A stretch of DNA of 64,000 nt, taken from the NCBI RefSeq assembly GCF_006704125.1, contig NZ_VIGH01000005.1, forward strand, positions 248,001 to 312,000, read 5' to 3'. Positions within the stretch are counted from its first letter, which is position 1, and each line of letters opens with the position of its first letter. The stretch is from Rhodococcus spelaei. GTDB lineage: Bacteria; Actinomycetota; Actinomycetes; Mycobacteriales; Mycobacteriaceae. The notes below the pieces were generated by a model. The model was given only the letters and a program-made list of their open reading frames with translations, was not told where the DNA came from and made no database searches. Below, one piece after another: positions 34,258-64,000 of this stretch. The position numbers and the translations under genes were made by a program.

Positions 34258-37200
34258 TTGAAGCCGACTGCGTTCGACGGACTCGACGGCACGAACCGCG
34301 TCACGCACGGTGACGCGAACGAGGCCTTCCCGCTCTCACATGCGCAGCTCGGCATGTGGTACGCCCAGCACGTCGACCCCGAAGTGCCGATCAACATCGC
34401 CCAGTACGTCGATCTCCGCGGTCCGCTGGACGTCGATCTCCTCGACGAGGCCAGCCTGACCGGTTCACGGGAGTTCGGCACCGGCTTCCTTCGCCTCGTC
34501 GAGGTCGACGGCACTCCGTACCAGGTCATCGACCTGTCCATCGAGGACCACGTCGGGTACGAGGACTTCCGCGGTCACGCGGACCCCGAGGCGGCCGCGC
34601 ACGAGTGGATGCGCGCCGAGTTCGGAGCCCCGCTCGACCTGCTCGAGGACCGCCTGATCTGCGCCACCCTGCTGCACATCGAGGACGAGCGGTACTTCTG
34701 GTACTCGCGGGTCCACCACATCGCGCTCGACGGCTTCGGCGCAATGGCGTACATGATGCGAGTGTCCGAGCTGTACTCGGCGCTGCTGGAGGGGCGGGAG
34801 CCCGCACCGTCGAAGGCCTGCAGTCTGCGCAGCCTGAACGAGGCAGACCTCGCCTACCGGGAGAGCTCCCGGTTCGCTTCCGACCGCGAGTACTGGGCCG
34901 AGCGGATCGCGGGCATGGAGGAGGGCAGCAGCCTAAGCGGACGCACGGCGCCGCCGGCCGTCGTCAACGGGGTGGCCAGCGCAGCACTGTCCGACGAAGC
35001 CAATGGTCTCCTGACTTCTGCTGTGGCAAAACATGATTCATCGCCCGCGGGCATGCTCATCGCGGCCTTCGCCGGATACCTGGCACAGTTGACGGACTCC
35101 GAGGACGTGATCCTGAGTCTCCCGGTCACCGCGCGCACCACCGCCCCGATGCGCCAGTCCGGCGGAATGCTCTCCAACGTGGTGCCGCTCCGGTTGCACG
35201 TCGGCGCGGACACCACGGTCGCCGACCTGCTCAAGTCCGTCCAGGTCGCGGTTGCCGGCGCACTGCGGCACCAGCGGTACCGGCACGAGGACATCCGTCG
35301 CGATGCGTCGTCGACCGCGATGGCGCGTGACCTGCTCGGACCCCTCGTCAACATCATGCTCTTCCACAACGAGATCACGCTCGGGCCGGTCCTCGGCGAG
35401 TTCAACATTTTGTCGACCGGCACCGTCGAGGACCTGGCGGTGAACTTCTACCAGAGTGTCGCCGGGACACGCACGCACGTCGACTTCGAGACCAATCCGA
35501 ATCTGTACACGCAGGACCAGGCGCACCAGCACCACTCCCGGTTCCTGGACTACTTCGAGCGCTTCCTCTCCGCCGGTGAGTCCGAGCAGGTGTGGCGGCT
35601 CGGCGCCGTCTCGGACGGCGAGTTGGCGACCCTGCTGACCGACTGGAACGACACGGCGCACGACGCGCTGGACGGCACGTTGGTGTCGGTGTTCGGGTCG
35701 CAGGTCGCCCGGACCCCGGATTCGGTCGCCCTGTCGTTCGACGGCGAGTCGTTGAGCTACTCGGAGTTCGACGAGCGGGTGAATCGTCTTGCACGGCATC
35801 TGATTTCGCTGGGAGTGGGTCCCGAGTCCCTGGTGGCTCTCGGGATGCGGCGATCGTTGGACCTGCTGGTCGGCGTGTACGCGGTGCTGGCGGCCGGCGG
35901 CGCCTACGTGCCGATCGACCCCGATCAGCCCGCCGAGCGGGTGGGGCACATTCTCGACACGGCCGCCCCGGCCTGCGTGCTGTCCACCTCGCGTGACGGA
36001 CTCGAGGTGCCGGGGGAGAGGTCTGTCCTGTTCGTGGACACCCTCGATCTGTCCGGCTATCCGTCCGCAGCGATCGCCGATGCGGAGCGGGTGTCCGGGC
36101 TGTCGGCGGACAACACGGCGTACGTCATCTTCACATCGGGCTCGACGGGTCGGCCGAAGGGCGTCGCCGTCAGTCACCGCGCGATCGTCAACCGGCTGGA
36201 CTGGATGCAGGCGGAGTACGAACTCGGCGTGGACGACGTCGTGTTGCAGAAGACGCCGGTGACGTTCGACGTGTCGGTGTGGGAGTTGTTCTGGCCGTTG
36301 CAGGTTGGTGCGCGACTGGCCATCGCGGTGCCTGACGGGCATCGTGACCCGGCGTATCTGGCGCAGGTGATGGCGGAGGAGTCCGTGACGACGGCGCACT
36401 TCGTGCCGTCGATGCTGGCGGTCTTCGCGGTGGAACCGACCGCGGCGCAGGCGTCGTCGCTGCGCCAGGTGTTCGCCTCGGGTGAGGCGCTGCCCGCGGA
36501 CACGGCTGCGCGCCTGCGCGAAGTGCTGCCACAGGTGCGGTTGCACAACCTGTACGGACCGACGGAAGCCGCGGTCGACGTCACGTTCCACGAGGTCACC
36601 GAGGCCGACACCGCCGCCGTGCCGATCGGCGCGCCGGTGTGGAACACCCAGGTGTTCGTGCTCGATTCTCGATTGCGGCCGGTGCCGGTCGGCGTCGAGG
36701 GCGAGTTGTACCTGGCCGGTGTTCAGTTGGCTCGCGGGTACGTCGGACGCAGTGACCTGACAGCGGACCGGTTCGTGGCGAACCCGTTCTCCGACACCGG
36801 TGAGCGGATGTACCGCACGGGCGACCTGGTGTCCTGGAACTCGTCCGGCGAGCTCGAGTACGTCGGGCGCACCGACTTCCAGGTGAAGCTGCGCGGTTTG
36901 CGAATCGAGCTCGGTGAGATCGAGACCGCGCTGCTCGGCCTCGCCGAGGTCGCGCAGTCCGTGGTGGTGGTGCGGTCCGATCCCCAGGCCGGCGAGCACT
37001 TGATCGCGTACGTGGTCCCCGCGCCGGGCGCCGTCGTGGAGCCAGACGAGGCCCGCGGCGCGGTGATGCGATCACTACCCGCGTACATGGTTCCCGCCGC
37101 AGTGGTGGTCCTCGAGCAGTTCCCGCTCAACGCCTCCGGCAAGCTCGACCGCAAGGCACTGCCGGTTCCGACGCTGGCGGCCAACCGCGACACTGTCTTC

Positions 37201-64000: not shown

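What the first reader, a model, noticed from the sequence alone, without database searches (positions are those of the whole stretch)
35683..62710. Readable adenylation codes: Ser-X-Thr-Thr-X-X-(basic?)-Ser-X
Pocket residues read by hand give DVWHFSLVDK (modules 1, 8: Ser), DFWNIGMVHK and DFWNVGMVHK (modules 3, 4: Thr), DVWEIGTVGK (module 7, Orn-like), and four codes I cannot assign: DVYMMAAVLK and DVYMAAGVLK (2, 6), DLWHLILVSK and DVWDFILVSK (5, 9). The unassigned codes fall into two related pairs, so only about five different monomers may be used. A Ser/Thr-rich peptide with hydroxyls and perhaps ornithine fits a siderophore or an acylated surface lipopeptide.
Basis: partly seen in the sequence, partly recalled or inferred. 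Interest (0 to 1): 0.68.

Follow-up and report, generated by a model that had tools for sequence, protein, structure and literature searches.

The report
Ser/Thr lipopeptide synthetase, ten modules
The window holds most of a giant bacterial enzyme gene that very probably builds a fatty-acid-capped, serine- and threonine-containing ten-residue peptide; the type is known in Rhodococcus, but two of its building-block codes match nothing catalogued here and recur across related genera.

Summary
The gene continues 3,032 bases past the window: 34213-67032, 10,939 aa, ten C-A-T modules, a thioesterase, then MbtH. The tenth code is DINVVGGVMK.

Supported: A1 and A8 are Ser (code identical to E. coli EntF, recomputed). 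A3 and A4 are Thr.

Not supported: ornithine at A7 (closest listed code 6/10, tied with non-Orn codes), and the siderophore idea. The genome's only convincing Orn/Lys N-oxygenase lies on another contig beside another NRPS. "About five monomers" is doubtful: A2, A6 and A10 are three equal cousins, and A5 and A9 fall in different A-domain families (not statistically decisive).

C1 falls in the starter clade, C2-C10 in the LCL clade, and there is no epimerase. The product is therefore most likely an N-acylated, all-L decapeptide: acyl-Ser-hydrophobic-Thr-Thr-X-hydrophobic-(basic?)-Ser-Y-hydrophobic.

The type is known: Ceniceros 2017 describes C-starter, Ser/Thr-rich rhodococcal NRPSs. The open point is the orphan codes (A5 DLWHLILVSK, A9 DVWDFILVSK, plus sister DVWS[LF]ALVHK). 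They recur in Rhodococcus, Nocardia, Speluncibacter and other genera of the family, but were absent from the library searched and are unassigned.

The parts
34213..64000 (+). NRPS1 gene, part inside the window; whole gene 34213-67032 (G000:C14:282213-315032), GTG start, 10,939 aa, 10 x C-A-T + TE
34324..35625 (+). C1, starter-type condensation domain (HHIALDG)
   Evidence: falls in a 14-member clade of first-position C domains, support 0.998
36268..37143 (+). A1 code span, DVWHFSLVDK, Ser
   Evidence: same as EntF
37480..38844 (+). C2, LCL-type
39508..40356 (+). A2 code span, DVYMMAAVLK, hydrophobic, unassigned
40681..42021 (+). C3, LCL-type
42664..43557 (+). A3 code span, DFWNIGMVHK, Thr
   Evidence: PMC12283262
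43882..45231 (+). C4, LCL-type
45871..46755 (+). A4 code span, DFWNVGMVHK, Thr (83% identical to A3)
47080..48432 (+). C5, LCL-type
49066..49941 (+). A5 code span, DLWHLILVSK, orphan code X
50266..51609 (+). C6, LCL-type
52264..53112 (+). A6 code span, DVYMAAGVLK, hydrophobic, unassigned
53437..54786 (+). C7, LCL-type
55423..56304 (+). A7 code span, DVWEIGTVGK, possibly basic (Glu at 278), unassigned
56635..57984 (+). C8, LCL-type
58621..59493 (+). A8 code span, DVWHFSLVDK, Ser
59818..61188 (+). C9, LCL-type
61822..62694 (+). A9 code span, DVWDFILVSK, orphan code Y
63022..64000 (+). C10 (continues to 64401), HHIAGDA motif; then A10 (code span 65041-65889, DINVVGGVMK), T10, TE to 67032 and MbtH at 67098-67319, all beyond the window end

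Best explanation
NRPS1 is a single-protein, ten-module lipopeptide synthetase. The starter C domain joins an acyl chain to the first Ser; nine LCL domains extend the chain in colinear order with no epimerisation; the C-terminal thioesterase releases the product, possibly as a lactone through a Ser/Thr hydroxyl or the acyl chain. Predicted product: acyl-L-Ser-(hydrophobic)-L-Thr-L-Thr-X-(hydrophobic)-(basic?)-L-Ser-Y-(hydrophobic), all L or achiral. The adjacent MbtH protein is the likely A-domain partner. Shown from sequence: domain order, codes, C-domain classes, absence of E domains, MbtH adjacency. Inferred: every substrate, fatty acyl rather than aryl start, release chemistry, and any role as a surface or secreted amphiphile.
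For: Domain content. Codes, with EntF as control. C-domain tree: starter clade 14/14, support 0.998; C2-C10 in a clade of 90 LCL-context domains only (support 0.58), away from the DCL clade; no E domain, all carrier motifs LGGNSL, whereas carriers before E domains elsewhere in this genome read LGGDSI. MbtH next to the gene here and in five relatives. A close starter domain, nearly always once per genome, in 23 of 61 sampled genomes of the family, 13 of 31 genera, in keeping with an old conserved assembly line. PMC5550956 describes rhodococcal C-starter NRPSs predicted to be Ser/Thr-rich.
Against: No product is known. The starter clade also holds EntF, whose acyl donor is an aryl group, so starter type alone does not prove a fatty acid. 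No FAAL or ACP was seen beside the gene; the nearest acyl ligase is FadD5 of an mce-type operon. C10 carries HHIAGDA instead of HHxxxDG, and its activity is unknown. PMC5550956 itself warns that such Ser/Thr predictions may be unreliable.
Confidence: 0.8

Rival explanations
1. It makes a hydroxamate or catecholate siderophore, with A7 loading (hydroxy)ornithine.
For: Ser/Thr-rich peptides occur in siderophores; the A7 code has Glu at 278; the starter clade contains EntF.
Against: The genome's only strong Lys/Orn N-oxygenase match (333 bits; the next is 36.9) lies on contig C1 at 852956-853981, beside a different NRPS that carries DMWNLGLINK, which I recall as an Orn-type code. Neighbours of NRPS1 are urease genes, MbtH, a GntR regulator, an acyl-CoA dehydrogenase, an aldehyde dehydrogenase and an mce-type operon; no iron uptake genes were seen.
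Confidence: 0.06
2. An acylated peptide like the best explanation, but with fewer monomer types because A5 and A9 load the same residue (and A2/A6 another).
For: A5 and A9 share I301, L322, V330 and S331; AU test does not reject one clade (p = 0.228).
Against: The best tree puts A9 with DVWSxALVHK (88/92) and A5 apart. Position 278 separates them in all members found: D in A9-type, H in A5-type. Both types often sit in the same synthetase.
Confidence: 0.3
3. A9 (and perhaps A5) loads diaminopropionate or diaminobutyrate.
For: Acidic residue at 278 in A9; PMC12283262 lists DVWQMIGDDK for hydroxy-Dab, which also has I301; an EctB-type Dab aminotransferase is present.
Against: No SbnA-type match over the curated cut-off and no SbnB-type match at all for Dap synthesis; overall code identity with that Dab code is low.
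Confidence: 0.15

Closest known systems
Rhodococcal C-starter lipopeptide NRPS clusters (Ceniceros et al. 2017, PMC5550956)
   Same: Starter C domain, large NRPS, predicted Ser/Thr-rich peptide, product unknown; one of their clusters (NRPS-5) also has a CoA ligase and an mce operon
   Different: Codes of that paper's clusters were not available for comparison; whether this locus belongs to one of its families was not tested
Rhodococcus maanshanensis orthologue (G001/L007, C16)
   Same: Starter domain 78% identical; codes of modules 1-5 match (Ser, DVYIMAAVLK, Thr, Thr, DLWHLILVSK); MbtH downstream
   Different: Split into two genes (5,964 and 8,479 aa) with 13 A domains; modules after 5 differ
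Rhodococcus triatomae orthologue (G004/L010, C14)
   Same: Single gene, MbtH plus the same gntR-acyl-CoA dehydrogenase-aldehyde dehydrogenase neighbours; A1, A3, A5, A8, A9 codes match
   Different: 9 modules; the last residue is the A9-type code
E. coli EntF (Ser-activating)
   Same: A-domain code DVWHFSLVDK identical to A1 and A8; starter-clade C domain; TE
   Different: One module, aryl start, siderophore

Membership tests
Type I modular NRPS | Repeated C-A-T modules in one frame | tested here: met
   ten C, ten A, ten T motifs
Type I modular NRPS | C-terminal thioesterase | tested here: met
   PF00975 4.3e-30, GWSLGG motif
C-starter lipopeptide NRPS | First C domain of starter class | tested here: met
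   clade of 14 first-position domains, support 0.998
C-starter lipopeptide NRPS | Fatty acyl (not aryl) donor | not testable with these tools
   EntF (aryl) is in the same clade; no FAAL/ACP seen beside the gene; FadD5 nearby belongs to an mce-type operon
All-L peptide | No E domain, no DCL or dual C domain | tested here: met
   no HHxxxDGVSW E motif, no HH[IL]xxxxGD dual motif; C2-C10 in LCL clade
Ser-activating A domain (A1, A8) | Code identical to a characterised Ser domain | tested here: met
   EntF recomputed; PMC3795760
Thr-activating A domain (A3, A4) | Code DFWNIGMVHK or one change | tested here: met
   PMC12283262
Orn-activating A domain (A7) | Code close to known Orn codes | tested here: inconclusive
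   best 6/10, tied with Thr and Phe codes, against codes quoted in the text of PMC12283262
NRPS siderophore cluster | N-oxygenase or iron uptake genes in the cluster | tested here: not met
   Orn/Lys N-oxygenase on another contig; neighbours
Daptomycin-type lipopeptide | FAAL and free-standing ACP beside the NRPS | tested here: not met
   neighbour genes
Mycobacterial glycopeptidolipid | Tripeptide-amino alcohol core with sugars | tested here: not met
   ten modules ending in TE, no glycosyltransferase among the neighbour genes scanned

The most novel reading that the evidence does not exclude
The A5-type (DLWHLILVSK) and A9-type (DVWDFILVSK) codes, with the sister DVWS[LF]ALVHK type, are lineage-wide adenylation families with specificities that code tables do not cover, so some of the commonest monomers of lipopeptides from this bacterial family are still unknown; at least one could be an unusual residue.
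Probability: 0.2. Interest if true: 0.55.

Novelty: new member of a known kind. Interest (0 to 1): 0.36.

Why it matters
Codes that no reference seen here explains block structure prediction for many Rhodococcus and Nocardia lipopeptides. A9-type was found in 23 of 47 genomes sampled around close starter domains. In nine further synthetases of other genera it was found in six, as the first residue in each of the six. One ATP-PPi exchange assay each for A5, A9 and a DVWS-type domain would make many synthetases readable.

Tried and rejected
Paper searches for the unassigned code strings, whole or in part, returned none of them; only the Ser code DVWHFSLVD was found, in one paper. The library holds open-licence papers only, and the tables and supplements of PMC12283262 were not readable, so absence is weak evidence. 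PDB sequence search puts linear gramicidin synthase A first for every domain tried, which does not tell the substrate. Pocket modelling was not attempted, because the structure tool gives no coordinates to measure. Dual C/E domains considered and rejected. Diaminopropionate disfavoured for lack of SbnA/SbnB. The tree-based claim that A5 and A9 differ is not decisive (AU p = 0.228). A scan of 118 genomes of the class found close A9-type domains only within the own family, but few same-family genomes were in that sample. Searches for a paper on the close relatives' products found none.

Full report
Setting. The window is G000:C14:248001-312000 of a 4.8 Mb genome (68.7% GC over the stretch read). 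The genome holds five giant NRPS frames (about 5,600 to 14,500 aa).

Observation.

Substrates. A1 and A8 carry the EntF code; PMC3795760 states that this code matches characterised Ser domains. A3 carries DFWNIGMVHK, named among Thr codes in PMC12283262; A4 differs by I to V and is 83% identical to A3. The rest have no match above 7/10 among the codes I compared, a small list taken mostly from the text of that paper, so this is not a full prediction. The A-domain tree splits the modules into a polar group (A1, A3, A4, A5, A7, A8, A9) and a hydrophobic group (A2, A6, A10). A2, A6 and A10 are 60-62% identical to one another. From memory only, A2 resembles the surfactin Leu code DAWMFAAVLK; no paper with that string was found, so this is a lead, not a test.

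Orphan families. In a careful tree of 46 domains, A9-type is one clade (100/99), next to DVWSxALVHK domains (88/92), while A5-type stands apart. An AU test does not reject joining A5 and A9 (p = 0.228). Among 47 genomes sampled, A9-type appears in 23 and A5-type in 9; these were chosen by a close starter domain and mostly read over the first three modules, so the counts are lower bounds. In nine further synthetases from other genera of the family, A9-type (with variants such as DVWDFVLVTK) occurs in 6, A5-type in 7 and DVWS-type in all 9. Position 278 is D in every A9-type and H in every A5-type read; since the types were sorted by code, this is partly by definition. Literature search found none of these strings.

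Chemistry of assembly. In a tree of 132 C/E domains, C1 lies with all other first-position domains (0.998), including EntF; C2-C10 lie among LCL-context domains only, though that node has low support (0.58), and DCL domains (after E) form their own group with one exception. NRPS1 has no E domain and all its carriers read LGGNSL, whereas carriers before E domains in this genome read LGGDSI. Hence an all-L product is predicted. Release mode (linear or lactone) cannot be read from the sequence.

Neighbourhood. Upstream: ammonium transporter, urease genes and urea transporter. Downstream: MbtH, a small protein without a Pfam match, GntR, acyl-CoA dehydrogenase, aldehyde dehydrogenase, MpaB-like, TetR, FadD5 and an mce-type operon, then a second NRPS of 14,478 aa. 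MbtH follows the synthetase in R. maanshanensis, R. oryzae, R. triatomae, R. tukisamuensis and Speluncibacter, and the gntR to tetR order is kept in R. triatomae and R. tukisamuensis. Codes of modules 1-5 match in R. maanshanensis, with one-letter changes in A2 and A3; later modules vary in number and code.

Siderophore question. The one strong ornithine/lysine N-oxygenase match lies on contig C1 directly after a different NRPS. Nothing near NRPS1 points to iron. Dap synthesis genes were not found above cut-off; a Dab aminotransferase of the ectoine type is present.

Novelty. The starter-domain family is widespread: 23 of 61 genomes, 13 of 31 genera of the family, one close copy each with one exception. 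PMC5550956 already described such clusters as putative Ser/Thr-rich lipopeptides. The finding is a new member of a known kind; the recurring orphan codes are the part worth testing.

Noticed in passing
G000:C14:335532-378968 (window scale 87532-130968, outside the window): Second giant NRPS, 14,478 aa, with three E domains, one Thr code (DFWNIGMVHK), a homoserine-like code (DLKNFGSDVK) and two DVWE-type codes.
   Followed up: partly
window scale 75567-83733 (outside the window; L003): FadD5 and an mce-type operon lie between the two NRPS genes; a similar NRPS-CoA ligase-mce grouping is noted in PMC5550956.
   Followed up: partly
window 24203-32400: Ammonium transporter, complete-looking urease operon (ureABC, EFG, D) and urea transporter directly upstream of the synthetase.
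   Followed up: no
window 63022-64000, C10: C10 has HHIAGDA in place of HHxxxDG; another NRPS of the genome (C18) has HHISIDA at one C domain.
   Followed up: no
G139:C19 (L107-L109): A related synthetase reads as one open frame of 15,769 aa with E domains; its first code is DVWDFVLVTK.
   Followed up: partly
G000:C1:836044-853981: 5,616-aa NRPS frame with code DMWNLGLINK and an adjacent Orn/Lys N-oxygenase: the likely hydroxamate siderophore locus of this genome.
   Followed up: partly
G001:C16 (L057-L059): In R. maanshanensis the orthologue is split into two genes (5,964 and 8,479 aa) with 13 A domains.
   Followed up: partly
window 47242-51987 and 59407-63174, minus strand: Long antisense open frames (1,581 and 1,255 aa) opposite the NRPS; taken as by-products of high GC codon bias, not tested.
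   Followed up: no
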